From positions 2,235,924 to 2,299,923 of the forward strand of contig NZ_CP024081.1 in assembly GCF_003033885.1 (NCBI RefSeq): a DNA stretch of 64,000 nucleotides, read 5' to 3'. This stretch comes from Pseudomonas rhizophila (GTDB lineage Bacteria > Pseudomonadota > Gammaproteobacteria > Pseudomonadales > Pseudomonadaceae). The notes below the pieces were generated by a model. That model ran no database searches. It was not told the DNA's origin and saw only the letters and a list, made by a program, of their open reading frames with translations. Below are positions 29,923-46,627 of the stretch, piece after piece. The position numbers were made by a program, and so were the translations under genes. Each line of letters starts with the position of its first letter. Positions within the stretch are counted from its first letter, which is position 1.

Positions 29923-30885
29923 GTGCGCCAGCGTTATTTAGCCTTGCTCAGTGTGTTTGCCAGCCTTCCCGCCATGGCGCTCACTTTCCAGACCCGTCTG
30001 GAGAGCATTGAGTGGACGGTCGAAGGCGACAAGTTCGAGTGCCGGCTGAGTCAGCCGGTCACCGATTTCGGCAGCGGCGAATTCGTGCGCCGGGCCGGCG
30101 AGCAGGCGATCTTCCGGCTCAAGTCCCATAACCCGATGCTCGGTGGTGGTTCGGCCATCCTGCTGGCGGCCGCCGCGCCTTGGCAGCCGGGACGGGGCGA
30201 CATCAACCTGGGCTCGGTCAGGCTCGGCAGCGGCGATGTGCTCTTCAACAGCTCTCAGGTCCAGGCGGGCCGCTTGATCAGCGGGCTGATGGAAGGGCGC
30301 AGCCCAGTGGTACGGCGTAACACGGGGGACGGGCGGGTTTCGGAAGTCCGGCTGCTGCCCGTGCGCTTCAACAAGGCCTTCAGTGATTACCAGGGCTGCG
30401 TGGCAAAACTGTTGCCGAAGAATTTCGAGCAGGTGAAGCAATCCCAGATCGGCTTTCCCGGCGAAGGCGTTGAGCTCGATGCCCGGGCCAAGGCTCAGTT
30501 GCAGGTGATGATCGACTTCATCAAAGCCGACCCGACCGTCAACCATGTCGAACTCGACGGTCACTCCGACAATAGCGGCAATCGATTGACCAATCGTGAG
30601 CTGTCTCGTCGCCGTGCCCTGGCGGTCCAGGACTTCTTCAAGGCCAACGGCTTTCAAGAGTCGCAGATCACCGTGCGGTTCCACGGCGAACGTTACCCCC
30701 TGGTGCCCAACACCAGTGCCGCCAATCGCGCCAAGAACCGCCGTGTGGCCGTGCGCCTGGAGCGTGTGGCGGTGCCTGAAGCGCCGGCACCGCAGGCTAC
30801 ACCCGCCGCGCCCCCTGCCAAGGCTCCGACGCCGACCGCGACACCGGCCCAGCCCACTGCAGCCACCGCCGCGCGGACATCCTGA
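29923..30885 (+). CDS. motY: Flagellar T-ring protein MotY (OmpA-like)
   Basis: A 320-residue exported protein. GTG at 29923 is taken as start because GGAG lies six bases upstream and a signal peptide follows (RQRYLALLSVFASLPAMA). The N-terminal domain (about 20-150) is the MotY-specific part, and the C-terminal OmpA-like peptidoglycan-binding domain (about 165-285) contains LDGHSDNSGN and NRELSRRRA. It ends in a Pro/Ala/Thr-rich tail. MotY helps anchor and engage the flagellar stator in Pseudomonas. It is divergent from pyrC and upstream of argG, as in P. aeruginosa. Confidence 0.88.
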   Translation: MRQRYLALLSVFASLPAMALTFQTRLESIEWTVEGDKFECRLSQPVTDFGSGEFVRRAGEQAIFRLKSHNPMLGGGSAILLAAAAPWQPGRGDINLGSVRLGSGDVLFNSSQVQAGRLISGLMEGRSPVVRRNTGDGRVSEVRLLPVRFNKAFSDYQGCVAKLLPKNFEQVKQSQIGFPGEGVELDARAKAQLQVMIDFIKADPTVNHVELDGHSDNSGNRLTNRELSRRRALAVQDFFKANGFQESQITVRFHGERYPLVPNTSAANRAKNRRVAVRLERVAVPEAPAPQATPAAPPAKAPTPTATPAQPTAATAARTS

Positions 30886-31012
30886 CCCGTGAGGATCGTC
30901 GCGCGCTCGACATAATCTGTCGCTTCGTCGTCATAAGCTGTCGCGCCCCTGTAAATTATCCGCGCTGGACGTTAAACTTCCCGGCTTTCCGTACAACCCG
31001 TGGAGTGATGGC

Positions 31013-32230
31013 ATGGCGGACGTAAACAAGGTCGTTCTGGCGTATTCCGGCGGCCTGGACACTTCGGTGATCCTCAAGTGGCTGCAGGACACTTATAACT
31101 GTGAAGTGGTGACCTTCACCGCTGACCTGGGGCAGGGCGAAGAAGTCGAGCCTGCACGCGCCAAGGCTCAGGCCATGGGCGTCAAAGAGATCTACATCGA
31201 TGACCTGCGCGAAGAGTTCGTCCGTGACTTCGTGTTCCCGATGTTCCGCGCCAACACTGTTTACGAAGGCGAGTACCTGCTGGGTACCTCCATCGCCCGT
31301 CCGTTGATCGCCAAGCGCCTGATCGAAATCGCCAACGAAACCGGTGCCGACGCCATTTCCCACGGTGCCACCGGCAAGGGCAACGATCAGGTGCGTTTCG
31401 AACTCGGTGCCTATGCCCTCAAGCCCGGCGTGAAAGTCATCGCGCCGTGGCGCGAGTGGGACTTGCTGTCCCGTGAAAAGCTGATGGACTACGCCGAGAA
31501 GCACGCCATCCCGATCGAACGCCACGGTAAGAAGAAATCCCCGTACTCGATGGATGCCAACCTGCTGCACATCTCCTATGAAGGCGGCGTGCTGGAAGAC
31601 ACCTGGACCGAGCACGAAGAAGACATGTGGCGCTGGACCGTCTCCCCGGAGAAGGCTCCTGACACCCCGCAATACCTGGAGCTGACCTATCGCAACGGCG
31701 ATATCGTCGCGCTGGACGGCGTGGAAATGAGCCCGGCCACCGTGCTGGCGACCCTGAACCGTATCGGTGGCGAACACGGCATCGGTCGTCTGGACATCGT
31801 CGAGAACCGTTATGTCGGCATGAAGTCCCGCGGCTGCTACGAGACCCCGGGCGGCACCATCATGCTGCGTGCTCACCGCGCGATCGAGTCGATCACCCTG
31901 GACCGCGAAGTGGCTCACCTCAAAGACGAGTTGATGCCCAAGTACGCCAGCCTGATCTACACCGGTTACTGGTGGAGTCCGGAGCGCCTGATGCTGCAAC
32001 AGATGATCGATGCCTCCCAGGTCAACGTGAATGGCGTCGTGCGCCTGAAACTGTACAAGGGCAATGTCATCGTCACTGGGCGCAAGTCTGACGACTCCCT
32101 GTTCGATGCCAACATCGCGACTTTCGAAGAGGACGGCGGCGCTTACAACCAGGCCGACGCTGCTGGCTTCATCAAGCTCAACGCCCTGCGCATGCGCATC
32201 GCGGCGAACAAGGGTCGCAAGCTGTTCTGA
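31013..32230 (+). CDS. argG: Argininosuccinate synthase
   Basis: ArgG joins citrulline and aspartate with ATP to form argininosuccinate. The 405-residue protein has the [18 protein letters not shown]-binding motif (about residues 10-24), [13 protein letters not shown] (about 119-131) and the conserved [11 protein letters not shown] segment. The start at 31013 follows GTGGAGTG. It acts after ArgF, whose gene is in the same window but a separate unit. A hairpin terminator follows the stop. Confidence 0.97.
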
Positions 32231-32732
32231 TCCTGGCTCCATGAAAACGGCCTGCCATGTGCAGGCCGTTTTTTTTGGGGGACCCTTTCCCCTGTGCTGC
32301 TCGTTCGTTGTGGCGCTGTTTTGCGCGTTTGGATCGATCGGCCTCGGCCAGGCCTTCCGGTGCCCGGGGGATAACCAAAATGAACAGTCGTCGCTGTTTT
32401 TTCTGTGGATGAACAGTGATCAGCCATCCTTTGCCCTTGGGCGCCCGGCGGGAAAACCGTGCGCGCCGACAGCTCGAATCATCCATGATTTTCATGAAGT
32501 GTTTGCTCTTGCGAAAATCCGAGGGCGAATATAACGAGCGATAGTTAAAGTTCAGGGTGATAAAAAAAAGAAATAATAGATAGAACGGAAAGCTGATCAG
32601 AAACCAAAGATAGTATTCACGGTCCTGATCGTCGAGGAAAGGCAGGGAGATGGCTGCCGAAGTCTCGGACAAAGTTGCGAATATAGCGATTAGCGTCATG
32701 GGGTTGGTGATGATTTTCGAAGGTTTGTTCAT
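32178..32732 (-). CDS. Doubtful ORF with two hydrophobic segments
   Basis: This 184-residue reading frame has a plausible first part. Residues 1-85 open with an [20 protein letters not shown] stretch and contain two hydrophobic segments around a [13 protein letters not shown] motif and [15 protein letters not shown]. That resembles small Pseudomonas membrane proteins of unknown function. The second part (about 90-184) is Arg- and Lys-rich, reads through the argG terminator and overlaps the argG 3' end, which is unlikely to be genuine. The real gene may therefore be a truncated copy with a broken 3' end. There is no strong ribosome site upstream. The surrounding DNA is richer in A/T than its neighbours. 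Confidence 0.35.
32245..32277 (+). terminator. Terminator of argG
   Basis: AAAACGGCCTGC and GCAGGCCGTTTT form a stem with a short loop, followed by a run of eight T's, 15 bases after the argG stop. Confidence 0.9.
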
Positions 32733-33201
32733 GGTGGATGCTCATAACATATTCAGGCTCGGTGATTGCATTAGGAAGGTGTGAGTAATTGATGAGTTCG
32801 CGGTTAAGGCATTGATCGTGGTGTTTCCTCATGAATAGGATTGAATAAATTTCGCTTATTCCTTATGTGAATTCAATTTTATTTAAATAAAACCTTTGTG
32901 GTTGTGTTGGTAAATAATTCAGTTACTTTTTATGAGGCGAGTGTTTTTTTGCTATTGGGGGACGGGGTGGATGCAGAAAAAAGCGCTTGTTTAGAGGGGC
33001 GCGGATCCCCTGATGCATCCATTTGCCTCTGTAAACAAATTTATGGCGCATTATTTCCAAGGGGATTTGTAGGATTTTTCTGTATCGCTTGTAGGTTGCG
33101 TCTCTCGGTGCGAGCGGTCAGGGGGGGCGGCATGCCAAGGTAGAATTGACTAGGCTATTGTGCGTGCTCTAAAAATTCGAACAGCGAAGTTGGATTTGCC
33201 C
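32733..33201. other. AT-rich intergenic region
   Basis: About 470 bases upstream of the response regulator with no convincing gene. Long A/T runs (for example near 32865-32895) contrast with the GC-rich flanks. It may hold the regulator promoter, but I see no clear sigma70 or sigma54 site. A short frame at 32898-33143 exists but has no recognisable features. Confidence 0.5.
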
Positions 33202-33828
33202 ATGAATAAAGTGCTGATCGTGGATGATCATCCCGTCATTCGTCTTGCTGTACGTTTGCTAATGGAGCGTCATGGATATGAAGTTATTGCCGAAACCGAT
33301 AATGGCGTCGATGCGTTGCAACTTTCCCGTGAACTTATGCCTGATATCGTTATTCTGGATATCGGCATTCCGAAACTGGATGGACTGGAGGTCATCGCAC
33401 GCCTGACCGCCAACCCTTCACCTTTGAAAGTTCTGGTGCTGACTTCCCAGGCACCTGGGCATTTTTCGATGCGCTGCATGCAGACGGGGGCAGCCGGTTA
33501 TGTGTGCAAGCAGCAGGACCTCACCGAGTTACTCAGTGCAATCAAGGCGGTGCTGTCGGGGTACAGTTATTTCCCCAATCAGGCGCTGCATACGGTGCGT
33601 TCGAGTCTGGGTAACGCAAGCGAGTCCGATATGGTCGATCGACTGTCCGGGCGAGAGATGATGGTCTTGCAGCAACTGGCTCGCGGAAAGACCAACAAGG
33701 AAATTGCCGATGGGATGTTCTTGAGCAACAAGACCGTCAGTACATACAAGACACGCTTGTTGTTGAAGCTCAATGCCCGCTCGCTGGTTGATCTGATCGA
33801 ACTGGCGCAGCGTAACGGGTTAGTGTGA
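33202..33828 (+). CDS. RocA/BvgA-type orphan response regulator
   Basis: A 208-residue NarL/LuxR-type regulator. The receiver domain (about 1-120) has the phospho-acceptor Asp53 (VILDIGIPKLDG) and Lys near 103. A LuxR-type helix-turn-helix (about 145-205) contains LSGREMMVLQQLARGKTNKEIA. The N-terminal MNKVLIVDDHPVIRLAVR is very like RocA1 and BvgA. The start at 33202 is favoured by homology; upstream codons give only a weak ribosome site. No sensor kinase lies beside it, so its partner, if any, is elsewhere. It precedes the PA3496-like gene (convergent), with a shared hairpin between them. Confidence 0.88.
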   Translation: MNKVLIVDDHPVIRLAVRLLMERHGYEVIAETDNGVDALQLSRELMPDIVILDIGIPKLDGLEVIARLTANPSPLKVLVLTSQAPGHFSMRCMQTGAAGYVCKQQDLTELLSAIKAVLSGYSYFPNQALHTVRSSLGNASESDMVDRLSGREMMVLQQLARGKTNKEIADGMFLSNKTVSTYKTRLLLKLNARSLVDLIELAQRNGLV

Positions 33829-33852
33829 GTTTTTCCGGCCGCGCGTACTCAG

Positions 33853-33880
33853 TAAAAAGCCTCCATTCGGGAGGCTTTTA
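33853..33880. terminator. Bidirectional terminator
   Basis: AAAAGCCTCC-ATTC-GGAGGCTTTT hairpin with T-runs on both strands, between the convergent regulator and the PA3496-like gene. Confidence 0.85.
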
Positions 33881-33884
33881 CGTG

Positions 33885-34067
33885 TCAGAGGTCAAAGTCG
33901 TAATCGGCCAGTTGTTTCTGCAAGCGGCGCTCTTCCAGCAGATTATCAATCGTGCGACGTTTGCTCAGATTGGTTTTCGCTGTTTCGACGACCACAGGTT
34001 CCACATCGTCGGCCTCAACGGCGATGAAATCGTCTTCTACATCCAGTTGTTCTTTGTCAGCACTCAT
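33885..34067 (-). CDS. PA3496-family small acidic protein
   Basis: A 60-residue acidic protein, MSADKEQLDVEDDFIAVEAD to YDFDL, with a basic central block (AKTNLSKRRTIDNLLEERRL). It matches what I recall of the PA3496 family, annotated as putative envelope integrity protein, although no membrane segment is seen. The start at 34067 follows TGGAGTCGATCCC; the longer frame is rejected. It lies upstream of nth on the opposite side of a 107-base gap, as PA3496 lies next to nth in P. aeruginosa. Its function is not known. Confidence 0.75.
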   Translation of the reverse strand: MSADKEQLDVEDDFIAVEADDVEPVVVETAKTNLSKRRTIDNLLEERRLQKQLADYDFDL

Positions 34068-34174
34068 GGGATCGACTCCAGGCTTAAACTGCCATTGGCG
34101 CTCCTTATATCGATAAACCACGGGCGGGTAAAAAAGATTTTTTCAATCGACAAATCAATAAAAGCAATAGCGCC

Positions 34175-34813
34175 TCAATCGTCGGAGGTCTTGTGCTTGT
34201 ATTCGCATAAGTCCTCGATCCGGCAGCTGCCACAGCGGGGCTTGCGCGCCAGGCAGACGTAACGTCCGTGAAGGATGAGCCAGTGATGGGAATCGAGTAG
34301 AAATTCCTTGGGTACGAATTTCATCAGCTTTTTCTCCACCTCCACCACGTTTTTGCCCGGCGCCAGCCCGGTGCGGTTGCTGACGCGGAAAATGTGAGTG
34401 TCGACGGCCATGGTCAGTTGGCGAAATGCGGTGTTGAGCACCACATTGGCGGTTTTGCGACCGACCCCTGGAAGCGCTTCCAGCGCTTCGCGAGTCTGTG
34501 GGACTTCGCCGTTGTGGCGCTCGATCAGCAGGCGGCATGTCTCGATCACGTTTTTTGCCTTGCTGTTGAACAGGCCGATGGTCTTGATGTACTCGGACAG
34601 CCCTTCGACGCCCAGCGCGTGAATCGCCTGCGGCGTGTTGGCCACCGGGAACAGCTTGGCCGTGGCCTTGTTGACGCCGACGTCGGTGGATTGGGCCGAC
34701 AGAATTACCGCGATCAACAGTTCGAACGGCGAGCTGTAGGCCAGTTCGGTCTTCGGTTCCGGGTTGTCTTCGTGCAAGCGACGGAATATTTCCAGGCGTT
34801 TTGCGGCGTTCAT
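34175..34813 (-). CDS. nth: Endonuclease III (Nth)
   Basis: A 212-residue DNA glycosylase/AP lyase that removes oxidised pyrimidines. The helix-hairpin-helix motif with the catalytic Lys is LPGVGRKTANVVLN (about 114-127), followed by the catalytic Asp in VDTHIFRVSNRTG. The [4Fe-4S] site at the C-terminus has the exact C-x6-C-x2-C-x5-C spacing (CLARKPRCGSCRIEDLC). It overlaps the upstream rnfE gene by four bases (ATGA), so it is the last gene of the rnf operon. rnf-nth linkage is widespread in proteobacteria. Confidence 0.96.
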   Translation of the reverse strand: MNAAKRLEIFRRLHEDNPEPKTELAYSSPFELLIAVILSAQSTDVGVNKATAKLFPVANTPQAIHALGVEGLSEYIKTIGLFNSKAKNVIETCRLLIERHNGEVPQTREALEALPGVGRKTANVVLNTAFRQLTMAVDTHIFRVSNRTGLAPGKNVVEVEKKLMKFVPKEFLLDSHHWLILHGRYVCLARKPRCGSCRIEDLCEYKHKTSDD

Positions 34814-35343
34814 GGGCGCGGCGTTTCCTCGATCGTTGAAGGGGGGCTGGCGCCCGTCCAGGCCTGGTGCGCTGCCAGCAACAGACCGAGCAGAATAAAC
34901 CCGCCAGGGGCGAGCAAGGCCAGTGATATTGCGTTGCCAATCAGCTCGCGCAGGGCGCCCAAGCCGATCATCAGCAGGCCGAACACGCCTGCCAGCCTGA
35001 GATGTTCGGGCAGGCGTGAGCCGACGAAGATGTCGTCATGCTCCAGCGCCACGCAGCTCAAAGCGATCCAGCCAATGTAAAGGCTCAGCGGCTGATACAT
35101 TTCCAGCATCCAGGCCTGCGCCATCAGGCCTGCGCAAGCCGTCAGGGTGGCGGCCAGCACAATGGAGGCGAGCAGTCGCTGAGGCGCTGTCAGGTGGGAC
35201 CGTACCAGCCCCATGGCCAAGCCATGGCCGGCACTGATCAGTACCCAGGCCAGCCATAAGCCCAGCGCGTTTGCCAGCGAATCGCTGGCGCCGACCAAGG
35301 GCACGAGCAGCAGGCCGCGGGTCAGGAGCAATGGCTTATTCAT
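34810..35343 (-). CDS. rnfE: Electron transport complex subunit RnfE/RsxE
   Basis: A 177-residue integral membrane protein with about six hydrophobic segments, somewhat shorter than the roughly 200-230 residues of most RnfE proteins; the N-terminus seems trimmed. Motifs such as LANALGLWLAWVLI and the CVALEHDD segment fit the RnfE family. The ATG at 35343 overlaps the rnfG end by eight bases. In a complete Rnf complex it forms half of the membrane channel with RnfA. Confidence in the family is good; the short N-terminus is unusual but consistent with the rest of this reduced cluster. Confidence 0.82.
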   Translation of the reverse strand: MNKPLLLTRGLLLVPLVGASDSLANALGLWLAWVLISAGHGLAMGLVRSHLTAPQRLLASIVLAATLTACAGLMAQAWMLEMYQPLSLYIGWIALSCVALEHDDIFVGSRLPEHLRLAGVFGLLMIGLGALRELIGNAISLALLAPGGFILLGLLLAAHQAWTGASPPSTIEETPRP

Positions 35344-35947
35344 CAATGATCACTCCGGTCAGTTGAGCCTGATGCTCGTCGAAGTAACGCAGTGCATCGT
35401 GAACAGCCTGCAGGACCGATCGGGAGGTGACGGTCGCGCCAGCCAGTTGATCGAACTGCCCCTGATCCTTTTTCAACGCCCAGCCGCTGTCGGTGGGCGC
35501 CTGGAGCGACTTACCGTTGAAGGATTGCAGCCAGGGATTTGGCCAGTCAGCGATGGCCGCACCCAGGCCGGGCGTTTCCGACTGGCGCAGGGTTTTCACG
35601 CCCAGCAACCGCCCTTGCGGGTCGATAGCGACCAGCAATTGGATGCTGCCTTCATAGCCCAGTACCTGACTGCGTAACAACACTGCGTTGGGCAGGCCGG
35701 CACGAGTCGCCAGGTATCCGCCCAGCAGCGTGCTATGGGCCAAGGTCACGGGGGCCGTTACGACAGGTTGTGCCAATGGCTGATTGTCGTATCGGTCGGT
35801 CGGCAGCACGTCGAGCAAGGTTCGGTTCGCAAGGTCTTGTTGCTGACCCTTGATGCGCCCTGCGGTGCTGAGCTGAGTCAGGTAAGTGGCCCCAATGCCG
35901 AGACCGATCAGCAAAGCCAGGATGGCAACGCCACGGTAGTTTTTCAT
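35336..35947 (-). CDS. rnfG: Electron transport complex subunit RnfG/RsxG
   Basis: A 203-residue subunit with a single N-terminal membrane helix ([21 protein letters not shown]) and a periplasmic FMN-binding domain. The flavinylation site is in AGATVTS (about residues 173-179); Thr would carry covalent FMN. The start at 35947 overlaps the rnfD stop by four bases (ATGA); the longer frame, in another register, is rejected. It passes electrons between RnfD and the periplasmic side. Its motif is preserved even though rnfC is missing from the cluster. Confidence 0.87.
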   Translation of the reverse strand: MKNYRGVAILALLIGLGIGATYLTQLSTAGRIKGQQQDLANRTLLDVLPTDRYDNQPLAQPVVTAPVTLAHSTLLGGYLATRAGLPNAVLLRSQVLGYEGSIQLLVAIDPQGRLLGVKTLRQSETPGLGAAIADWPNPWLQSFNGKSLQAPTDSGWALKKDQGQFDQLAGATVTSRSVLQAVHDALRYFDEHQAQLTGVIIDE

Positions 35948-36930
35948 AGGGGCTGCGACCTGTGTCGCGCCTCGGCGAAGCGCTCCAGTGCGGGCACGCC
36001 GAGGTTCATCAGCAGCACCGCAAACGCCACGCCGTCCGGGTAACCACCCCAAGTCCGGATCAAGTAAGTCAGCAGTCCCACGCCTGCGCCAAACAGCAGG
36101 CGAGCGAGGGGCGCTTTGGCGCCCGAGACCGGTTCGGTCACGATAAAAAACGCACCGAGCAGGGTCGCACCCGTGAGCAGATGAAACAACGGCGAGCCAT
36201 TGGAGTCGGAGCCCGATCCGTTCCAGCACAACAAGCTGATGATGAACAGGCCGGCGAGCATGCCCACCGGCGCGTGCCAGCTGAACACCCGTTGGTGCAG
36301 CAGGAACAGTCCTCCGGCCAGAAACGCCAGGTTGACCCACTCGACGCCGCGCCCACCCCAGCGTCCGAACGCCGGGTTGGCGGCGAACAGCTCATCGATG
36401 GTCAGGCTTTTGTTGATTCGCAGGCTGTCCAAAGCCGTTGCTGCTGCCCATCCATCAGGCCCAGGGTGAACCGCGAACACCTGTTGCAGGCCGTCGGACA
36501 GGCTCATGCCGTGAAGTGCCGGCCATTGATTGAGTTGCTGGGGAAACGCGATCAGCACCAGGGCGTAGCCGAGCATCGCCGGGTTGAACGGGTTATTGCC
36601 GACGCCGCCCCACAGGTGCTTGCCGAACAGCAAGGCGCAAGCTGTGGCTGTGACGGTCAGCCACCAGGGGCAATACGCTGGCAAGGCCAGCGCCAACAGC
36701 GTGGCGCTTACCAGCGCGCTGCCATCGTTGAGTGCCGGTTTGAGCGGCCGGCGCCGTAAGCGCAGCGCCAGTGCTTCGACGGCCAGTGCGCTAAGGCCCG
36801 CCAGCAACAGGTTGAACACCACGCCCCAGCCATAAAACCACGTCAACGCCAGAATGCCGGGCAGTGTCGCCAGTAGCACCCGCAGCATCGCCTGCCGCAG
36901 CCGTTCGTCCATGGGCTCAGGGAGCGACAT
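35944..36930 (-). CDS. rnfD: Electron transport complex subunit RnfD/RsxD
   Basis: A 328-residue membrane protein with about nine hydrophobic segments. The [15 protein letters not shown] motif (Thr that carries FMN) is at about residues 247-261, and the [16 protein letters not shown] segment near the C-terminus is typical. Three close ATG codons are possible; 36930 has the best ribosome site (AGGTGG). It overlaps the rnfB stop (36917) by 14 bases. That overlap leaves no room for rnfC, which usually sits between rnfB and rnfD. Confidence 0.87.
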
Positions 36931-37924
36931 GAGCATCCACCTGGCGTTCGGCGTCTTTCACCGCTTGCTCCAGGGGCTCTATTTGTTCATCCGACGCCCC
37001 TGCGGCCCTGGCCTTGCTGAGTTCGGCGCGACGCATGGCCAATTGGATCTTGGCCCGTTTCAGCTCGGCACTTTGAGTGGGGGCGGGGGTTGAAACAGTG
37101 GGCTGGACCGTCCCTTCCAATTGCGTCAAGGTTTGTTGCGCCGCTTCGAACTGGCGCTGTAGCACGATCAATTGCGACTGTTGTTCGAAGGTCGGCGGGT
37201 GGCCGAATGCTTTCAAGGATTTGTTCAACTGCGCCCGGCTCATGGCCAGGTCGACCTTGGCTTTTTTCAAGGCCGCATCGGCGTTGGCGGCTTTTTGCGC
37301 CCGTACCCGCTCCAGTGCCGCTTGCACGGGGTCGACGGACTGGGTTTGGGGCTGTGAGGCGCGCTGTGTACGGGCCAGACGCTCGGCGAGACGCTGCTCC
37401 TCTTCGCGGCGCAGACGTGCGTTGCGCTGTTCGAAGCGCCGCCGGGCATGGTCGCGCTTGGCGGTGCGCGCTTGCTGCTCTTCGACGCTGAAGGCCAAGC
37501 CACCGACCACCGGCACCACGGTTGCCGTGGGCAATGGGTGCATTTCGATGCAGTCGACCGGGCAGGGCGCCACGCATAGATCGCAGCCTGTGCATTCGTC
37601 GACCAGGACGGTGTGCATCAACTTCGCCGCACCGACAATCGCGTCTACCGGGCAGGCCTGGATGCACTTGGTGCAGCCGATGCATTCGGCTTCGCGAATA
37701 AAGGCGATCTGCGCCGGGGCTGAACCACGGCTGGTATCGAGCTCAAGCACAGGCACTTTCATCAGCTCGGCCAAGGCGGCGATGGTTTCACGGCCACCGG
37801 GCGGACACTTGTTGATCGGTTCGCCCTGGGCGATGCCTTCGGCGTAGGGCTTGCACCCGGGGTGGCCGCACTTGCCGCATTGGGTCTGCGGCAGCAGGGC
37901 GTCGATACGTTGAATCAGACTCAT
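36917..37924 (-). CDS. rnfB: RnfB/RsxB ferredoxin-like subunit with extra repeated tail
   Basis: A 335-residue iron-sulfur protein. Residues 1-45 hold a 4Fe-4S site (Cys16, 19, 24, 40) and residues 81-121 hold two further CxxCxxC...CP clusters (Cys81/84/87/91 and Cys111/114/117/121). The usual N-terminal membrane helix of RnfB is absent; the protein starts directly at [16 protein letters not shown]. From residue about 140 on is a long charged, probably helical tail (a [17 protein letters not shown] stretch). It carries two related repeats, each with an AKxxLAMxRAxLxK core followed by a spacer and an acidic helix. Such tails are familiar from RnfC, so the gene may have taken over part of RnfC. 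It is overlapped by rnfA (four bases) and by rnfD. Confidence 0.85.
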
Positions 37925-38493
37925 GCTTTGACCAGCCCGCGCAATCCAAGAAATGCCACCGCCATGAGCCCTGCGCCGATCAACTGGATCGGCAGACCAC
38001 GAAAGGGTCTGGGGATATCGTTATCGAAGGTGCGCTGACGCAAATCATCGAACAGGCTCAACACCAGCCAGAAACCCAGGCCGGCGCCCAGGCTCGCGGC
38101 GACGGTGAGGCCCAGGCCGTGGTCATTCCGGCTGTTGATCAGCGTGATGCCCAGTATGCCGGCATTGCCCAGCAGCAGTGGCCACAAACCATCGAACGGC
38201 AGCGTCGGCAGCCAGCGCCCCAGCCAGTGCAGCAACGGTGCAATCAGCAACACACTCAAGGACAGCCATGCCAACAGGCGCAGCGAGGTCAGATTGGCCG
38301 GAACCAGCAGCCAGCGATCGATCAGATAACCCAAGGTGCCGACCATCAGCATCAGGCATGTCGTCGCCAGGCCCAGGGCGTGGACTTGCCTTCTTCCATT
38401 GGCCGCCAGCAGCGGATTGACGCCCAGCGGCCAATGCAACACAAGGTTGTTGATCAGGGCGGCGCTGAACAGTGTAAGAACGATTTCGGTCAT
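37921..38493 (-). CDS. rnfA: Electron transport complex subunit RnfA/RsxA
   Basis: A 190-residue membrane protein with six hydrophobic segments. The [18 protein letters not shown] (about residues 12-29) and [22 protein letters not shown] (about 106-127) segments match the RnfA/RnfE family. The Cys found in many RnfA proteins near the first segment is not obvious. It is the first gene of the rnf operon (rnfA-B-D-G-E-nth) and is separated from metG by 129 bases that include the metG terminator. Confidence 0.85.
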
Positions 38494-38568
38494 GGGCGTG
38501 CTGGAACGAGAACCTGTCGTTAGAGGTTAGGCATTATCCGGCACACCGTCAGGGTGGGCCAGATATGA

Positions 38569-38602
38569 AAATCCCACAGTCGCCTGCCGGCGACTGTGGG
38601 AT
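38569..38602 (-). terminator. Terminator of metG
   Basis: ATCCCACAGTCGCC and its complement form a 14-base stem; on the minus strand it ends GGGATTTTC. It lies about 20 bases after the metG stop, upstream of rnfA. Confidence 0.82.
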
Positions 38603-38622
38603 CGGTACCGCGCGTGGTCGCG

Positions 38623-40668
38623 TTATTTGATCCGCTGACCCGGCTTGGCGCCGCTATCGGGGCTCAGCAGGTAGATTTCTTCACCGCCGGGACCTGCCGC
38701 CATCACCATGCCTTCGGAGATGCCGAAACGCATTTTGCGCGGCTTGAGGTTGGCGATCATCATCGTCAGCCGGCCTTCGAGCTTGGCCGGGTCTGGATAG
38801 GCGCTCTTGATGCCGGAGAACACGTTGCGCTGCTCATCACCGATGTCCAGCGTCAGGCGCAGTAGCTTGTCGGCGCCTTCCACGGCTTCAGCCTTGACGA
38901 TCAGGGCTACGCGCAGGTCGATGGCGGCAAAGGCGTCGAAATCGATCTCCGGCGACAACGGGTCCTTGGTCAGCTCGCCATTGCCGGCCGGGGCACCGGT
39001 GTCGGTCTGGCTGGCGGCCAGGTCTTCTTTCGAGGCGTCGGTCATGGCTTGCACCTTGGTGGCGTCGATGCGAGTCATCAGCGGCTTGAACTCGTTCAGT
39101 TGATGGTTGCTCAGCAGCGTCTGGTGATCGTCCCAGGTCAGCGGTGCGACGTTCAGGAAAGCTTCGGCATCGGCGGCCAGCAACGGCAGCACCGGCTTGA
39201 GGAAGATCACCAGTTGGCGGAACAGATTGATACCCAGGGCGCAGATCGCCTGGACTTCGTCCTGCTTGCCTTCCTGTTTGTTCAGTGACCACGGCGCCTT
39301 GTCGGCGATCCAGGCATTGGCGCGGTCGGCCAGGGCCATGATCTCGCGCATCGCCCGGGCAAAGTCACGGGCCTCGTAGGCTTCGGCGATGCTCGGGGCC
39401 GCCGCCAGAAAGGCCTCGGTCAGCTCCGGCGCGGCGTTACCGGCCACCAGTACACCGGCGTTGCCTTTGTGGATGAAGCCGGCGCAACGGCTGGCGATGT
39501 TGACTACCTTGCCCACCAGGTCGGAGTTGACCTTCTGCACGAAGTCTTCAAGGTTCAGGTCCAGGTCGTCCACGCCACGGCCGAGCTTGGCCGCGTAGTA
39601 GTAGCGCAGGTATTCCGGCGACAGATGGTCCAGGTAGGTCCGGGCCTTGATGAAGGTGCCGCGGGACTTGGACATTTTCTGTCCGTTGACGGTCAGGTAG
39701 CCGTGGACGTTGATACCGGTCGGTTTACGGAAACCGGCGCCTTCGAGCATGGCGGGCCAGAACAGCGCGTGGAAGTTCACGATGTCCTTGCCGATGAAGT
39801 GATACACCTCGGCCGTGGAGTCCTTGCCCCAGAACGCGTCGAAGTCCAGCTCCGGCGTGCGGTCGCAAAGGTTCTTGAAGCTCGCCATGTAGCCGATGGG
39901 CGCGTCCAGCCATACGTAGAAATACTTGCCGGGCTCGCCGGGGATTTCGAAGCCGAAGTACGGCGCATCGCGGGAAATGTCCCACTCTTGCAGGCCGGAG
40001 TCGAGCCATTCGGCGAGCTTATTGGCCACCGCGTCGTGCAACGTGCCGCTGCGGGTCCAGGTTTGCAGCATCTCTTGGAAGTCCGGCAGCTTGAAGAAGA
40101 AGTGCTGGGAGTCCTTGAGCACTGGCGTCGCCCCGGAAATCGCCGATTTCGGGTCCTTCAGGTCGGTCGGTGCGTAGGTGGCGCCGCATTTTTCGCAGTT
40201 ATCGCCGTACTGGTCCTCGGTGCCACATTTCGGGCAAGTGCCTTTGATAAAGCGGTCGGCCAGGAACATTTTCTTTTCCGGGTCGAAATACTGGGTGATC
40301 GAACGGGTCGCGATGTGCCCGGCGTCACGCAGCTTCAGGTAGATCTGGCTCGACAGCTCACGGTTTTCTTCGGCGTGAGTGGAGTGGAAGTTGTCGAAGT
40401 CCACCAGGAAATCGGCAAAGTCGGCGCTGTGTTCGGCCTGGACGTTGGCGATCAGTTGCTCCGGGGTGATGCCTTCCTTTTCCGCGCGCAGCATGATGGC
40501 CGAACCGTGGGCGTCGTCGGCGCAGACATAGATGCACTGGTTGCCGCGATGTTTCTGGAAGCGCGTCCACATATCGGTCTGGATGTATTCCAGCATATGG
40601 CCGAGGTGAATCGAACCATTGGCATAGGGCAGGGCGCTGGTGACGAGGATCTTGCGTGGCTCGGACAT
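38623..40668 (-). CDS. metG: Methionyl-tRNA synthetase
   Basis: MetG charges tRNA(Met). The 681-residue class I enzyme has the HIGH-type motif HLGH at residues 21-24 and a zinc site from CPKCG and CEKCG (Cys145, 148, 158, 161). The QKMSKSRGT loop is at about 332-340, and a C-terminal OB-fold tRNA-binding domain runs from about 575 to 681 ([15 protein letters not shown]). It is divergent from mrp, as in P. aeruginosa. The 307-base gap to mrp holds a REP doublet. Confidence 0.97.
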
Positions 40669-40781
40669 GGGGCTCGGCTACTTGATGAAACGGAGGTCGG
40701 CCACTATAAAGCGCTGGGAAATATATTTCACCCCACTGGCCTGTTTCCGGATGCATTGCTGGGGGCGGTATGGACACAACC

Positions 40782-40904
40782 TGTGGCGAGGGGATTTGTC
40801 CCCGCTGGACTGCGCAGCAGTCCAAAATAGAGCACTCTGACACACTGTAGCAGCAGGTTTTAGGGCCGCTGCGCGCCCCAACGGGGATAAATCCCCTCGC
40901 CACA
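40782..40904. repeat. REP doublet (GTGGCGAGGGGAT family)
   Basis: Left arm TGTGGCGAGGGGATTTGTCC and right arm CGGGGATAAATCCCCTCGCC bound the element. It lies between metG and mrp; no gene is seen in the 307-base gap. Confidence 0.82.
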
Positions 40905-40975
40905 AAGGTGTTCGCGCGACAGCGTGGGGCGTAGGATAGCGGCCTGTTTTTCAAGTCTTGCTATCGGAGTTGCCC

Positions 40976-42070
40976 ATGAGCGCCGTCAATCGCGCAGCGG
41001 TGGAAGCCGTTCTTCGCCAGTACACCGACCCTTACCTGAATCAGGACCCGGTCAGCGCCGGATGCGTGCGCACCATCGACATCCAGGGCGATCGCGTCAG
41101 CGTCCAGCTGGAAATCGGCTACGCCGCCGATCTGTTCAAGAGCGGGTGGGCGCAAATGCTGCAAATGGCGATCGAGTCCATGGACGGTGTAGCCAGCGCC
41201 AAAGTCGACGTCACCAGCGTGATCGCTGCTCACAAGGCCCAGGCGCAGGTGCCGGGGCTGGCGAACGTCAAGAACGTGATCGCTGTGGCCTCGGGCAAGG
41301 GCGGCGTGGGTAAGTCCACCACCGCCGCCAACCTGGCCCTGGCCCTGGCCCGTGAAGGCGCGAAGGTCGGGATTCTCGACGCGGACATATACGGCCCGAG
41401 TCAGGGCATCATGTTCGGCGTTGCCGAGGGCACCCGGCCGCAGGTCAAGGACCAGAAATGGTTCGTTCCGATCCAGTCCCATGGCGTGGAAGTCATGTCC
41501 ATGGCCTTCCTGACCGATGACAACACGCCGATGGTCTGGCGCGGGCCGATGGTTTCCGGCGCCTTGCTGCAACTGGTGACGCAGACCGCCTGGGGCGATC
41601 TGGATTACCTGGTGATCGACATGCCGCCAGGCACCGGGGATATCCAACTGACCCTGGCGCAGAAAGTCCCGGTGGCCGGTGCGGTGATCGTCACCACGCC
41701 GCAGGATCTGGCCCTGCTGGACGCCCGCAAGGGTGTGGAGATGTTCCGCAAAGTGAACATCCCGGTACTGGGTGTGGTGGAAAACATGGCCGTGCACATC
41801 TGCTCGAACTGCGGACATGCCGAGCATCTGTTCGGTGAAGGCGGCGGAGAAAAACTGGCGAGCCAGTACGGCGTCGAACTGCTGGCCTCGCTGCCGCTGT
41901 CGATGCTGATTCGCGAGCAGGCTGACGGCGGCAAACCCACGGTCATTGCCGAGCCGGACAGCCAGATCGCCATGGTCTATCAGGAACTGGCTCGCCACGT
42001 CGGCGCGCGGATCGTGCTGCAAGAGGCTGCGTCACCGGCGATGCCGAACATCACCATGAGCGACGATTGA
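40976..42070 (+). CDS. mrp: Iron-sulfur cluster carrier Mrp/ApbC
   Basis: A 364-residue P-loop ATPase that carries Fe-S clusters. An N-terminal DUF59/MIP18-type domain (about 1-80) is followed by the Mrp ATPase. Walker A is GKGGVGKSTTA at about residues 107-117, and the Cys pair CSNCGH is at about 277-282. The start at 40976 (MSAVNRAAVEAVL) has CGGAG upstream; the 40958 start adds six residues without support. It is divergent from metG, as is common. In Pseudomonas it is also called apbC. Confidence 0.95.
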   Translation: MSAVNRAAVEAVLRQYTDPYLNQDPVSAGCVRTIDIQGDRVSVQLEIGYAADLFKSGWAQMLQMAIESMDGVASAKVDVTSVIAAHKAQAQVPGLANVKNVIAVASGKGGVGKSTTAANLALALAREGAKVGILDADIYGPSQGIMFGVAEGTRPQVKDQKWFVPIQSHGVEVMSMAFLTDDNTPMVWRGPMVSGALLQLVTQTAWGDLDYLVIDMPPGTGDIQLTLAQKVPVAGAVIVTTPQDLALLDARKGVEMFRKVNIPVLGVVENMAVHICSNCGHAEHLFGEGGGEKLASQYGVELLASLPLSMLIREQADGGKPTVIAEPDSQIAMVYQELARHVGARIVLQEAASPAMPNITMSDD

Positions 42071-42091
42071 ATAAGCCGTAACACAATCCAT

Positions 42092-42180
42092 TGTGGGAGC
42101 GAGCCTGCTCGCGATAGCGGTGTATCAGTCACATCAAAGTTGACTGACCCGGCGCCATCGCGAGCAGGCTCGCTCCCACA
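42092..42180. repeat. REP doublet (GTGGGAGCGAGC family)
   Basis: Arms TGTGGGAGCGAGCCTGCTCG and its complement lie between the convergent mrp and SDR genes. Confidence 0.85.
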
Positions 42181-42198
42181 GTGGTTGTGTGTCGGTTT

Positions 42199-42963
42199 TT
42201 AGATCCGCAACCCGCCATCCATCTCCAGGATCCGACCGGTGTAATAGTCGTTCTCGAAGATGTACGCCGCCGAATGGGCGATCTCCTCGGGTTTGCCCAT
42301 GCGCTTGAGCGGGATGCCAGAGGTCATTTTTTCCAGGGCTTCGGGTTTCATGCCCAGGGTCATTTCGGTTTCGATGAAGCCCGGCGCGATGCCGGCGACA
42401 CGGATGCCGTAGCGTGCCAGTTCCTTGGCCCAGGTCACGGTGGCGGCCGCCACGCCGGCCTTGGCCGCCGAATAGTTGGTCTGGCCGACGTTGCCGGCGC
42501 GCGAGATCGACGAAATGTTGATGATCGCGCCGCTGTTCTTCAGCTCGACCATTTTCGCTGCCACTTCGCGGGTACACAGGAAGACACCCGTGAGGTTGAC
42601 GTCAATCACCGCCTGCCACTGGGCCAGGCTCATTTTGCTCATTTCGCCGTCCTTGACCTTGAGCAGCAAGCCGTCGCGCAGGATCCCGGCGTTGTTGATC
42701 AAGCCGTGAATCGCGCCGAAGTCTTCGGCGACCCGGGCGACCATGTCGCTCACTTGCTCCTCATTGGCGACGTTGCACAGATAAGCCCGGGCCTCGACAC
42801 CCTTGGCCGCGCAGGCGGCAACCGCCTGGTCGAGTTTTTCCTGATTGAGGTCCACCAGGGCGAGCTTGGCGCCTTTGCCGGCGAAATACTCGGCCATGGA
42901 GCGGCCCAGACCCTGGCAACCGCCGGTGATAATGATTACTTTGTCGGTGAGTTGCATTGGCAT
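42199..42963 (-). CDS. SDR-family oxidoreductase (FabG-like)
   Basis: A 254-residue short-chain dehydrogenase. It shows the [14 protein letters not shown] dinucleotide motif (about 14-27), the NNAG motif (about 92-95), the catalytic Ser-Tyr-Lys in [20 protein letters not shown] (about 150-170) and the C-terminal DGGLRI. It most resembles 3-oxoacyl-ACP reductases, but single-copy FabG-like SDRs have varied substrates and none can be named. Two ATG codons are close; the second (42957, MQLTDKV) has better spacing to GGAC. It is divergent from the HugZ-like gene, as in P. aeruginosa. Confidence 0.88.
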
Positions 42964-43120
42964 GTCCAGATTGCAGAGCGGTTGGAGGATGTCCTTTTAC
43001 TGGCCTCTCGATCTGCGACGGCGTAGCCCGGTTGCACACGAGAACTGCCTAAAGGCGCGCTGGTACTTTGCTCCAGTCGCCTGACCGTTTCCAGACGGAT
43101 TTGATCAAAGGAGTCATAAA

Positions 43121-43852
43121 TTGAGCGTTGAAGCTGCCAAGCATGCACGAGAATTGCTGCTCAAGGAATACCGTGGAGTGCTCTCCACCCATTCCAAATC
43201 CATGCCCGGTTTCCCGTTCGGCTCCGTGGTGCCATATTGCCTGGACGACCAAGGCCGTCCACTGATCCTGATCAGCCGTATCGCCCAACACACCCACAAC
43301 CTGCAAAAAGACCCCAAGTGTTCAATGCTCGTAGGTGAGCGGGGGGCCGAGGATGTGCAGGCCGTAGGGCGCCTGACTTATCTGGCCGAGGCGCGCAAGC
43401 TGGAAGACAACCTCGCCATCGACGCCGCCGCTGAGCGTTACTACCGTTATTTCCCGGAGTCGCAGAACTACCACAAGGCCCATGACTTCGATTTCTGGGT
43501 GCTCAACCCGGTGCGTCATCGTTACATCGGTGGCTTTGGGGCCATTCACTGGATCGACCAGATCACCCTGGCCAACCCCTTCGCCGGCAAGGCCGAAGCC
43601 AGCATGATCGACCACATGAATGCCGACCATGCCAAGGCCATCGCGCATTACGTCGAGCTGGCCGGTCTGCCCGCCACCGAACCTGCGCAACTGGCCGGTA
43701 TCGACAGCGAAGGCATGCACTTGCGGATCGGTCAGGCCCTTTACTGGCTGGCGTTTCCAGCGCCTTGCAATACGCCGACACAAGTGCGCGAAGCCTTGGT
43801 TTATCTGGCTCACGCCGAGCAATGGCCAAAAAATGCTGAGGCTGACGCTTGA
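43121..43852 (+). CDS. HugZ-like heme/flavin-binding protein (split barrel, DUF2470)
   Basis: A 243-residue member of the pyridoxamine-phosphate-oxidase-like split-barrel family, with an N-terminal barrel (about 5-150) and a C-terminal DUF2470 domain (about 165-240) that contains MIDHMNADHAKA. Similar proteins (HugZ, HutZ) take part in heme degradation in some bacteria. The start codon is TTG at 43121, supported by AAGGAG seven bases upstream; the protein then starts MSVEAAKHARELL. No heme uptake genes are adjacent, so heme breakdown is only a possibility. Confidence 0.82.
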   Translation: MSVEAAKHARELLLKEYRGVLSTHSKSMPGFPFGSVVPYCLDDQGRPLILISRIAQHTHNLQKDPKCSMLVGERGAEDVQAVGRLTYLAEARKLEDNLAIDAAAERYYRYFPESQNYHKAHDFDFWVLNPVRHRYIGGFGAIHWIDQITLANPFAGKAEASMIDHMNADHAKAIAHYVELAGLPATEPAQLAGIDSEGMHLRIGQALYWLAFPAPCNTPTQVREALVYLAHAEQWPKNAEADA

Positions 43853-43918
43853 ATTCACGAAAGGGCGACGTCATTTAGGGTTTGATAGCAAGGCATTCTT
43901 GCGTTGAGGAACCTTTTG

Positions 43919-44395
43919 ATGCGCCCTTTTTTGTTGCTCTTTCTGCTGTTCCCGGTGTTGGAGCTGTTCGTATTCGTCAAGGTCAGCGGGGCGATCGGGT
44001 TTTTCCCGGCGCTGCTGCTGGTCATTCTCGGCTCGATGCTCGGCGTGTTCGTGCTGCGCATCGCCGGCCTCGCCACGGCTCTGCGTGCCCGTGAAAGCCT
44101 GAACCGTGGCGAGCTGCCTGCCCAGACCATGCTCGAAGGCCTGATGCTGGCCTTGGGTGGCGGTTTGTTGATCCTGCCTGGCTTCATCAGCGATGTGCTG
44201 GGCCTGGTCATGCTGCTGCCGTTCACCCGTCGGTTGCTGGCCAATAAAATGCGCCAGCGTGCCGAAGAACAGGCGATTCGCCAGCGAGCCTTCGCCGACG
44301 ACCTTCAGCCCCGTGGCGGGCCGCCTCCACGAGAACCTGTGGGCCGCGAACCGGATGTGATCGAAGGCGAGTTCGAGCACCGCGATACCAAGTAA
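43919..44395 (+). CDS. fxsA: FxsA family membrane protein
   Basis: A 158-residue membrane protein. It has two to three hydrophobic segments (about 2-20, 26-47 and 74-100), with FLLFPVLELFVFVKV at the N-terminus, and a charged Arg-rich C-terminal tail. FxsA in E. coli affects exclusion of phage T7 by F plasmid; its normal role is unknown. GAGGAA lies seven bases upstream of the ATG at 43919. It is next to groESL, which is also the usual place in enterics and Pseudomonas. Confidence 0.9.
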   Translation: MRPFLLLFLLFPVLELFVFVKVSGAIGFFPALLLVILGSMLGVFVLRIAGLATALRARESLNRGELPAQTMLEGLMLALGGGLLILPGFISDVLGLVMLLPFTRRLLANKMRQRAEEQAIRQRAFADDLQPRGGPPPREPVGREPDVIEGEFEHRDTK

Positions 44396-44403
44396 AACCA
44401 GCG

Positions 44404-44433
44404 ACACGGCACCTTCGGGTGCCGTGTTCGTTT
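44404..44433 (+). terminator. Terminator-like hairpin after fxsA
   Basis: ACACGGCACC-TTCG-GGTGCCGTGT is a ten-base stem with a stable UUCG loop, followed by a short TCGTTTT. The T-run is weak, so termination may be partial. Confidence 0.65.
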
Positions 44434-44468
44434 TCGGCTTCGTGAAGTAAAAAATTTTCTACCCGACC

Positions 44469-44497
44469 CTTGAAATCGGCTTGTACGCCCTTATGTA
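44469..44497 (+). promoter_or_regulatory. Sigma32 heat-shock promoter of groESL
   Basis: CTTGAAA (44469-44475), 12 bases, then CCCTTATGTA (44488-44497) fits the sigma32 pattern CTTGAAA-N11-16-CCCCATNT closely. It is about 145 bases upstream of groES. No CIRCE element is seen. Confidence 0.8.
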
Positions 44498-44639
44498 TGG
44501 GTCACCGCAAGGTTTCCGGTGGCGACACTGGACAGACTTCCGCGGTTCGCTTGACGAACCGCATCCGGCTCCGCCGGCTTTTGTTAAACCCGCCGGGACT
44601 ACACCGGCCGATGAAAACCAAAATTAGGAGAGATCGACA

Positions 44640-44933
44640 ATGAAGCTTCGTCCTCTGCATGACCGCGTCGTCATCCGTCGCAGCGAAGAAGAGAAGAAAA
44701 CCGCTGGCGGTATCGTCCTGCCAGGTTCGGCTGCTGAAAAAGCCAACCACGGTGAAGTTCTCGCTGTAGGCCCAGGCAAGGCTCTGGAAAACGGTGAAGT
44801 ACGTGCGCTGGCCGTGAAAGTGGGTGACAAGGTTGTGTTCGGCCCTTACTCCGGCAGCAACACAGTGAAAGTCGACGGCGAAGACCTGCTGGTGATGAGC
44901 GAGAACGAAATCCTCGCTGTCCTGGAAGACTGA
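44640..44933 (+). CDS. groES: Co-chaperonin GroES
   Basis: A 97-residue GroES ring protein that caps GroEL. The mobile-loop region [16 protein letters not shown] is at about residues 18-33. AGGAGAGATCGACA precedes the ATG. It is the first gene of groESL, with groEL starting 50 bases downstream. Expression is expected from the sigma32 promoter at 44469-44497. Confidence 0.98.
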
Positions 44934-44971
44934 TTCCCCCGCTCATTTTCCCGTTACTACAAAGTATTTAA

Positions 44972-46627
<1,656 letters not shown>

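What the first reader, a model, noticed from the sequence alone, without database searches (positions are those of the whole stretch)
34810..38493. rnf cluster without rnfC, and RnfB with an RnfC-like repeated tail and no membrane anchor
Five rnf genes (A, B, D, G, E) are packed with short overlaps, and rnfB and rnfD overlap by 14 bases, so rnfC, normally between them, is absent. RnfB lacks the usual N-terminal helix and has about 195 extra residues with two related helical repeats, similar in style to RnfC tails. RnfE also looks shortened. FMN-binding motifs in RnfD and RnfG are kept. Seen directly: gene order, overlaps, missing helix, repeats. Known: RnfC supplies the NADH/FMN site in standard Rnf. 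Inference: a reduced Rnf-like complex that takes electrons from another donor, with RnfB having absorbed part of RnfC.
Basis: partly seen in the sequence, partly recalled or inferred. Interest (0 to 1): 0.72.

Follow-up and report, generated by a model that had tools for sequence, protein, structure and literature searches.

The report
Rnf complex stripped of RnfC
In many Pseudomonas bacteria a membrane electron pump called Rnf has lost its NADH-handling part and the iron-sulfur wire through the membrane, while its flavin-carrying parts live on and its iron-sulfur subunit has picked up the tail of the lost part, which suggests a pump reworked into something else or being slowly lost.

Summary
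The rnfA-B-D-G-E cluster lies between metG and nth; the complete 5.95 Mb genome shows no RnfC, second Rnf or NQR. RnfB lacks its membrane helix and ends in a tail derived from the RnfC tail: a profile of 23 RnfC tails finds the window's at E=4e-28, matches all 63 C-less RnfBs tested, and 0 of 1,260 shuffles. It is no local oddity: of 199 genomes in the genus 25 have RnfC, 96 B and D without C, 52 B without D, 16 D without B, 10 neither. RseC is lost almost exactly with RnfC (24 of 25 against 1 of 174). So an ordinary NADH:ferredoxin pump is unlikely. Most likely: a remodelled flavoprotein core (the RnfD-RnfG half-route to the periplasm) plus a detached RnfB; slow decay is the chief rival. A new variant of a known kind; I found no paper describing it.

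The parts
37921..38493 (-). rnfA (190 aa). The two [2Fe-2S] cysteine positions are N26 and A111 here; one other cysteine (C46) elsewhere in the protein
   Evidence: Pfam PF02508 64 bits; alignment to 24 complete clusters; residue numbers counted by eye
37526..37924 (-). rnfB core, residues about 1-133: all 12 Fe-S cysteines kept, no N-terminal membrane helix
   Evidence: TIGR01944 217 bits; cysteine pattern in 63 of 63 C-less RnfBs; hydropathy
36935..37480 (-). rnfB tail, residues about 149-330, homologous to parts of the C-terminal tail of RnfC (two helical repeats)
   Evidence: RnfC-tail profile, E=4.1e-28; two matched stretches, profile positions 15-82 and 197-324 of 397; helical hairpins
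35944..36936 (-). rnfD (330 aa from the first start). Flavin-attachment Thr167 and the NPFNPAM motif kept; the C-terminal YYTxPR motif is lost
   Evidence: TIGR01946 362 bits
35336..35947 (-). rnfG (203 aa). Flavin-attachment Thr172 in AGAT kept
   Evidence: TIGR01947 152 bits; start and overlap read from the sequence
34810..35343 (-). rnfE (177 aa, shortened). First [2Fe-2S] cysteine lost (V14), second kept (C97)
   Evidence: PF02508 50 bits; fold matches NqrD/RnfE
34175..34813 (-). nth (endonuclease III), last gene of the packed run and conserved border
   Evidence: Pfam HhH-GPD 81.5 bits; present in all 34 loci printed
38623..40668 (-). metG, conserved border; a hairpin followed by T residues lies between metG and rnfA (about 38565-38600), so rnfA may have its own promoter (no sigma-70-like match was found)
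   Evidence: Pfam; sequence read by eye; neither the hairpin nor a promoter is listed by the scan

Best explanation
The cluster descends from a complete RnfABCDGE set. Shown: (1) RnfC is gone except for its C-terminal tail, which now follows the ferredoxin domain of RnfB, as it follows RnfC's own two-[4Fe-4S] domain in complete clusters; RnfB has no membrane helix. (2) RnfA lacks both, and RnfE one, of the cysteines of the [2Fe-2S] cluster that carries electrons through the membrane. (3) RnfD and RnfG keep their covalent-FMN sites and are the best-kept membrane parts. Inferred: A-D-G-E is a flavoprotein complex that runs only the RnfD-RnfG half of the old route, moving electrons from a cytoplasmic- or quinone-side donor through RnfD's flavins to the FMN of RnfG in the periplasm and on to an unknown periplasmic acceptor, without redox pumping through RnfA-E. 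The RnfB-tail chimera is a soluble ferredoxin that can feed RnfD where both are present, perhaps from the place of RnfC, but has a job of its own, since each module survives without the other in other species.
For: No RnfC over cut-off, NQR or second Rnf in the genome. RnfC-tail profile: 63 of 63 RnfB tails, 0 of 1,260 shuffles at E<=1, one other ORF, itself a tail fragment (L119); early-branching tails run to the end of RnfC. Cysteines: RnfA 0 of 52 at both positions, RnfE first 0 of 41, against 24 of 24 in complete clusters; flavin Thr in RnfD 50 of 51 (one Ser) and RnfG 50 of 52 (two Ser). Of columns invariant (95% or more) in 23 complete clusters, C-less proteins keep in RnfD 119 of 226, RnfG 40 of 106, RnfA 22 of 175, RnfE 12 of 152. 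dN/dS at most 0.42 for every gene measured in 26 pairs that I picked, clusters without B included. All 140 genomes with RnfD/NqrB over cut-off have ApbE, 10 of 59 others do. Precedent for a one-way RnfD/RnfG-type route: NQR/RNF-like systems (passages of PMC8238504 and PMC11334425).
Against: RnfB occurs without RnfD in 52 of 199 genomes and A-D-G without RnfB in 14 of 14 fetched loci, so an RnfB-to-RnfD transfer is not obligatory. RnfD lacks the C-terminal YYTxPR motif in all 51 C-less sequences, which may mean that nothing docks where RnfC did. RnfA and RnfE evolve faster than in complete clusters. RnfE keeps its second cluster cysteine in 38 of 41, and 20 of 31 C-less RnfAs have one or two cysteines elsewhere, so some other cluster is not excluded. 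At the first RnfA position 16 of the 52 rows have an alignment gap rather than another residue. ApbE has two other likely clients in this genome (two NosR-like FMN_bind proteins), so its presence is weak support. No donor, acceptor, expression or activity is shown by any search.
Confidence: 0.5

Rival explanations
1. Slow decay: once RnfC was lost the membrane part had no use and is being lost piece by piece; only RnfB, as a soluble ferredoxin, still matters. The A-D-G-E genes are relics.
For: Species tree of 97 loci: RnfB-only needs 10 changes, at least 6 forced by starred branches. RnfA and RnfE dN/dS 0.13-0.42 against 0.00-0.15 in complete clusters. RnfE not recognised in 11 of 52 C-less loci. 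One genome (L119) has a short rnfB frame, its tail in another frame and a truncated rnfD frame. 10 of 199 genomes have neither B nor RnfD.
Against: Reading frames, flavin threonines and RnfD sequence are kept over large distances, with dN/dS of RnfD 0.09-0.21 and RnfG 0.10-0.38. 14 of 14 fetched loci without RnfB still keep A, D and G, which is the wrong order of loss if RnfB were the only useful part. The 51 C-less RnfDs lie on one side of a branch with support 99, which suggests that the form is old, not fresh debris.
Confidence: 0.3
2. It still works as an Rnf: RnfB passes electrons to RnfA-E through the remaining cysteine and some other ligand, and RnfD passes them to quinone as NqrB does, giving a ferredoxin:quinone oxidoreductase with ion transport.
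For: RnfB keeps all 12 cysteines, RnfE keeps its second cysteine in 38 of 41, the RnfE model matches NqrD, and without RnfC the RnfD flavin could lie open to the membrane, as in NQR (inference).
Against: At least three of the four ligands of the cluster are gone in the C-less clusters where both RnfA and RnfE were seen, RnfB has no anchor, RseC is missing here, and A, D and G survive without RnfB.
Confidence: 0.12
3. A sequencing, assembly or annotation artefact, or rnfC moved elsewhere in the genome.
For: None found.
Against: Single complete contig, no RnfC_N hit over cut-off anywhere; 74 of 79 named related loci from other assemblies show no C in the fetched stretch of up to about 5 kb on each side; the short overlaps between neighbouring genes in the window leave no room.
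Confidence: 0.01

Closest known systems
RNF / RSX complex (RnfABCDGE), as in Azotobacter vinelandii, Clostridium tetanomorphum, E. coli Rsx
   Same: Homologous A, B, D, G, E genes in the same order, at the locus (metG-nth) where Halopseudomonas and other relatives carry complete rnfABCDGE; flavin-attachment sites in D and G kept; RnfB Fe-S cysteines kept
   Different: No RnfC, no [2Fe-2S] ligands in RnfA, one of two in RnfE, RnfB without membrane helix and with the RnfC tail, no RseC in the genome
NQR/RNF-like two-subunit systems (PMC8238504, PMC11334425; passages seen)
   Same: An NqrB/RnfD-type membrane flavoprotein with an RnfG-type extracytosolic flavin protein, thought to move electrons one way out of the cytosol
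   Different: Theirs has a C-terminal NAD-binding domain (PF00175) on the RnfD-like protein and no flavinylation Thr there; here Pfam finds no NAD domain, the Thr is kept, and RnfA and RnfE are still present
Na+-NQR
   Same: Shares the RnfD/NqrB, RnfG/NqrC and RnfA-E/NqrE-D folds; NqrB reduces quinone without an RnfC-type Fe-S output (PMC12174285)
   Different: No extra NqrB, NqrDE or NqrA-type hit in the genome (NqrF and NqrM were not searched); NQR uses four cysteines for the [2Fe-2S] cluster
NCBIfam PRK06991 (NF005415) RsxB
   Same: The best-scoring RnfB model; it aligns from its position 6, so it has no room for the usual N-terminal helix, and the match runs into the tail (residues 2-267)
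   Different: Scores 250.9 bits, under the cut-off of 281; members and gene neighbourhood of that family were not examined here

Membership tests
RNF complex | Homologues of RnfA, B, D, G, E in one gene cluster | tested here: met
RNF complex | RnfC with NAD/FMN and two [4Fe-4S] clusters | tested here: not met
   whole-genome RnfC_N search, no hit over cut-off; blastp with an RnfC core finds nothing in window 30001-46000
RNF complex | Four RnfA/RnfE cysteines holding the intramembrane [2Fe-2S] cluster | tested here: not met
   RnfA 0 of 2, RnfE 1 of 2 in the window; RnfA the same in all 52 C-less loci compared
RNF complex | Flavinylation threonines in RnfD and RnfG | tested here: met
   ApbE present in the genome
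RNF complex | RnfB anchored by an N-terminal helix | tested here: not met
   (hydropathy only)
RNF complex | Redox-coupled ion transport between ferredoxin and NAD | not testable with these tools
   needs biochemistry
NQR/RNF-like system | RnfD-like protein fused to an NAD-binding domain PF00175 | tested here: not met
   RnfD matches PF03116 only
Na+-NQR | NqrB and an NqrDE pair beside those of Rnf | tested here: not met
   two Rnf-Nqr hits and one PF03116 hit in the genome, all in this cluster
Na+-NQR | NqrF | not tested
   no search made

The most novel reading that the evidence does not exclude
RnfADGE is a new kind of minimal membrane flavoprotein complex that takes electrons from the quinone pool or a soluble donor and delivers them through two covalent FMNs to the periplasm, with RnfA-E kept as a scaffold without metal; the RnfB/RnfC-tail chimera is an independent soluble ferredoxin; and RseC, lost almost exactly with RnfC and the cysteines, is the factor that matures the RnfA-E [2Fe-2S] cluster, as NqrM is proposed to do for NQR.
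Probability: 0.27. Interest if true: 0.8.

Novelty: new variant of a known kind. Interest (0 to 1): 0.6.

Why it matters
Rnf is described as one six-subunit machine built around the RnfA-E [2Fe-2S] cluster and RnfC. Here is a natural deletion series at a single locus (complete, C-less, A-D-G with or without E, RnfB alone, none) in common, easily grown Pseudomonas species. It shows which parts are separable, makes the RnfD-RnfG half testable alone, warns that an RnfABCDGE-type label in such genomes should not be read as an NADH:ferredoxin pump, and gives a concrete hypothesis for what RseC does.

Tried and rejected
Rejected: rnfC elsewhere in the genome; an NQR or second Rnf in the genome; tail similarity to RnfC as an effect of composition (0 of 1,260 shuffles at E<=1, with HMMER's bias filter off); a strain-specific oddity; RnfE not being an RnfE (fold search).

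Led nowhere: promoter scan (no promoter-like site); PMC8042378 passage (a gene list that includes rnfC); PMC10797017 passage (a one-clade indel in RnfD). The ApbE co-occurrence was weakened by two NosR-like proteins with FMN_bind domains in the same genome. Fisher values ignore kinship and are not used as evidence of strength.

Literature: searches showed no title or abstract start that describes an RnfC-less Pseudomonas Rnf (open-licence PMC papers only; long lists were capped at 10 to 20 rows). Seen of papers: passages of PMC12174285 (also its outline and section 13, part 1), PMC4014512, PMC8238504, PMC11334425, PMC11729352, PMC8042378, PMC10797017. No paper was read whole.

Loose ends: that P. 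aeruginosa has a normal rnfC is recalled, not tested. In several family genomes the RnfB profile ran past one to three stop codons; not followed up. Whether complete clusters in the genus are ancestral or came back by exchange at the locus is not settled: the species tree mixes them with C-less ones, the RnfD tree does not. Both trees used the quick method with one kind of support, and the loci were picked by me, not at random.
Full report
WHAT IS THERE. The window is part of a complete 5,948,515-base genome. The closest named relative by RnfB in the capped list is Pseudomonas tehranensis (97%), then P. frederiksbergensis and others (86% and less). On the minus strand lie metG, rnfA, rnfB, rnfD, rnfG, rnfE and nth, the last six packed with short overlaps. 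Pfam names all five rnf genes. In NCBIfam rnfB passes TIGR01944 and one RsxB equivalog (212 bits, cut-off 203); rnfD and rnfG pass the TIGR subfamily models but not the Rsx equivalogs; rnfA and rnfE fail even the subfamily cut-offs (104 against 229 and 55 against 213 bits).

NO RnfC. In the whole genome RnfC_N (PF13375) gives two hits below the cut-off, at 23.6 and 22.4 bits. The first lies in a 661-aa frame that reads as an acetyl-CoA carboxylase-type biotin protein (my reading of the translation); the second was not identified. The FeS domain of RnfB occurs once, Rnf-Nqr twice and RnfD/NqrB once, all in this cluster. I take this as no NQR and no second Rnf.

RnfB CARRIES AN RnfC TAIL. I built a profile from the parts of 23 RnfC proteins (complete clusters of the same genus) that follow the second ferredoxin motif. 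It matches 63 of 63 RnfB tails from C-less loci (window E=4.1e-28, 97 bits; weakest 0.0006, L134) and 0 of 1,260 shuffles of those tails at E<=1. Among the other open frames of 90 aa or more in 101 loci it matches one, a tail fragment in the broken cluster L119. The window's tail covers two stretches of the profile (15-82 and 197-324 of 397); in early-branching species (L104, L043, L116) the RnfB tail runs to the end of RnfC, including the conserved stretch around SGKPxPxLVRTDK. The tail starts soon after the RnfB ferredoxin domain, as it does after the ferredoxin domain of RnfC. An in-frame deletion between rnfB and rnfC would give this product; that route is inferred. The same RnfB proteins show no N-terminal membrane helix but keep all 12 cysteines (63 of 63). 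The model of the tail shows a long helix and helical hairpins, the hairpins at high confidence; the Fe-S part is not reliable.

THE WIRE IS GONE. In RNF and NQR two cysteines from RnfA and two from RnfE hold a [2Fe-2S] cluster in mid-membrane, which passes electrons from RnfB to RnfG (PMC12174285, section 13 part 1). In 24 of 24 complete clusters all four are present. In C-less clusters RnfA has a cysteine at neither position (0 of 52; 16 rows have a gap at the first), RnfE lacks the first (0 of 41) and keeps the second in 38 of 41; RnfE was not recognised by BLAST in 11 of the 52 loci. Other cysteines occur in 20 of 31 C-less RnfAs, so a different cluster is not excluded. By contrast the flavinylation residue is Thr in RnfD in 50 of 51 (one Ser; the broken L119 was left out) and in RnfG in 50 of 52 (two Ser). 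RnfD is the best-kept membrane subunit, but its C-terminal YYTxPR motif, present in 23 of 24 complete clusters, is absent in 51 of 51 C-less ones. The RnfE model matches V. cholerae NqrD and several RnfE structures (Foldseek, TM about 0.6-0.7; only 3 chains at E<=0.001).

A SERIES OF FORMS AT ONE LOCUS. Of 199 genomes sampled from the genus, counted from the listings have a strong RnfC hit (above 110 bits), in one of them (G022) in a separate divergent cluster; 96 have B and D without C, 52 have B without RnfD, 16 have D without B, and 10 have neither. Note that 135 of 199 pass Pfam's own cut-off for RnfC_N: I left out the hits of 57-63 bits in frames of 480-594 aa (taken for NqrA, not checked) and those under 28 bits. 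Three genomes whose only PF03116 hit looks like NqrB were put among B-only by frame length; their fetched loci (L071, L073, L116) agree. Of 101 loci looked at (window included) 24 are complete, 38 are A-B-D-G with or without E, 14 A-D-G with or without E, and 25 RnfB alone; in all 34 loci printed both metG and nth were found beside the set. Of 79 named loci kept from a capped scan by RnfB similarity, 43 are A-B-D-G(-E), 31 RnfB only within the fetched stretch, 4 complete and 1 A-B-C-E. The first group includes P. protegens, P. chlororaphis, one P. syringae, P. otitidis and Stutzerimonas urumqiensis. Outside the genus but within the family, counted by eye from the listed rows, 41 genomes have an RnfB match reaching profile position 270 or more, and 40 of these have no RnfC_N hit over 100 bits; the exception (G205) has it on another contig.

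HISTORY AND SELECTION. On a metG+nth tree of 97 loci RnfB-only needs 10 changes, of which starred branches force at least 6. On the RnfD tree all 51 C-less rows lie on one side of a branch with support 99, which fits a single old origin; exchange between species is not excluded. In 26 near pairs that I picked dN/dS is (own script): C-less A 0.13-0.33, E 0.20-0.42, D 0.09-0.21, G 0.10-0.38, B 0.06-0.21; complete clusters A 0.00-0.11, E 0.05-0.15, D 0.04-0.14, G 0.07-0.34, B 0.02-0.19. All are well below 1, RnfA and RnfE much less constrained than in complete clusters.

PARTNERS. ApbE, the flavin transferase, is present in all 140 genomes with RnfD/NqrB over cut-off and in 10 of 59 others. This is only weak support, since this genome has two further FMN_bind proteins that read as NosR-like. 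RseC, needed for Rsx function in E. coli (PMC11729352, passages), is absent here and found in 25 of 199 genomes: 24 of the 25 with RnfC, and one C-less genome, G123. The missing one is G022, whose RnfC lies in the separate cluster. NqrM is described as apparently needed for insertion of the matching cluster in NQR (PMC12174285, passage). RseC doing the same for Rnf is my inference; RnfC and the cysteines are absent together here, so the data cannot say which of them RseC follows, and kinship makes the number of independent events small.

HOW IT MOST LIKELY WORKS. Shown: no RnfC, no complete [2Fe-2S] site, flavin sites and ApbE kept, an unanchored RnfB with the RnfC tail. Inferred: the RnfD-RnfG half of the route survives and moves electrons to the periplasm, as proposed for NQR/RNF-like systems (passages of PMC8238504 and PMC11334425), while RnfB has become a separate soluble ferredoxin. 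Against a tight RnfB-to-RnfD link stands that each occurs without the other. Slow decay is a real rival and would fit the repeated loss of A-D-G-E. The data favour neither strongly; I give 0.5 to the first and 0.3 to decay.

KNOWN OR NEW. I found no paper that describes an RnfC-less Rnf in Pseudomonas or a fusion of RnfB with the RnfC tail (searches; open-licence papers only, listings seen). One review notes that the long C-terminal helix of A. vinelandii RnfC touches RnfB and RnfH and that its function is not understood (PMC12174285, passage). The set is not a member of the RNF complex as defined: RnfC and the [2Fe-2S] site were tested and are not met. It is a derived variant of that family.

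Noticed in passing
G000 whole genome; genus sample of 199 genomes: RseC (PF04246) is absent together with RnfC: 24 of 25 genomes with RnfC have it, 1 of 174 without (G123). Suggests a role tied to the complete complex.
   Followed up: partly
L120-L133: A-D-G (E recognised in 9 of 14), lacking both RnfB and RnfC, in 14 of 14 fetched loci of the 16 genomes that have RnfD/NqrB but no RnfB; RnfD flavin Thr kept in 14 of 14, RnfG Thr in 12 and Ser in 2.
   Followed up: yes
L067 (G022): A second, divergent rnf cluster with RnfC but without the long tail (492-aa frame), in a genome whose metG-nth locus has the C-less form.
   Followed up: no
L119 (G034): Broken cluster: short rnfB frame with its tail in another frame and a truncated rnfD frame.
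   Followed up: no
L224 5025-6074 and 3420-4814: The genome's only ApbE hit lies beside a gene that reads as a soluble transhydrogenase (my reading), far from rnf.
   Followed up: no
L228, L229: Two long NosR-like proteins (my reading) with FMN_bind domains in the window's genome, likely further ApbE clients.
   Followed up: partly
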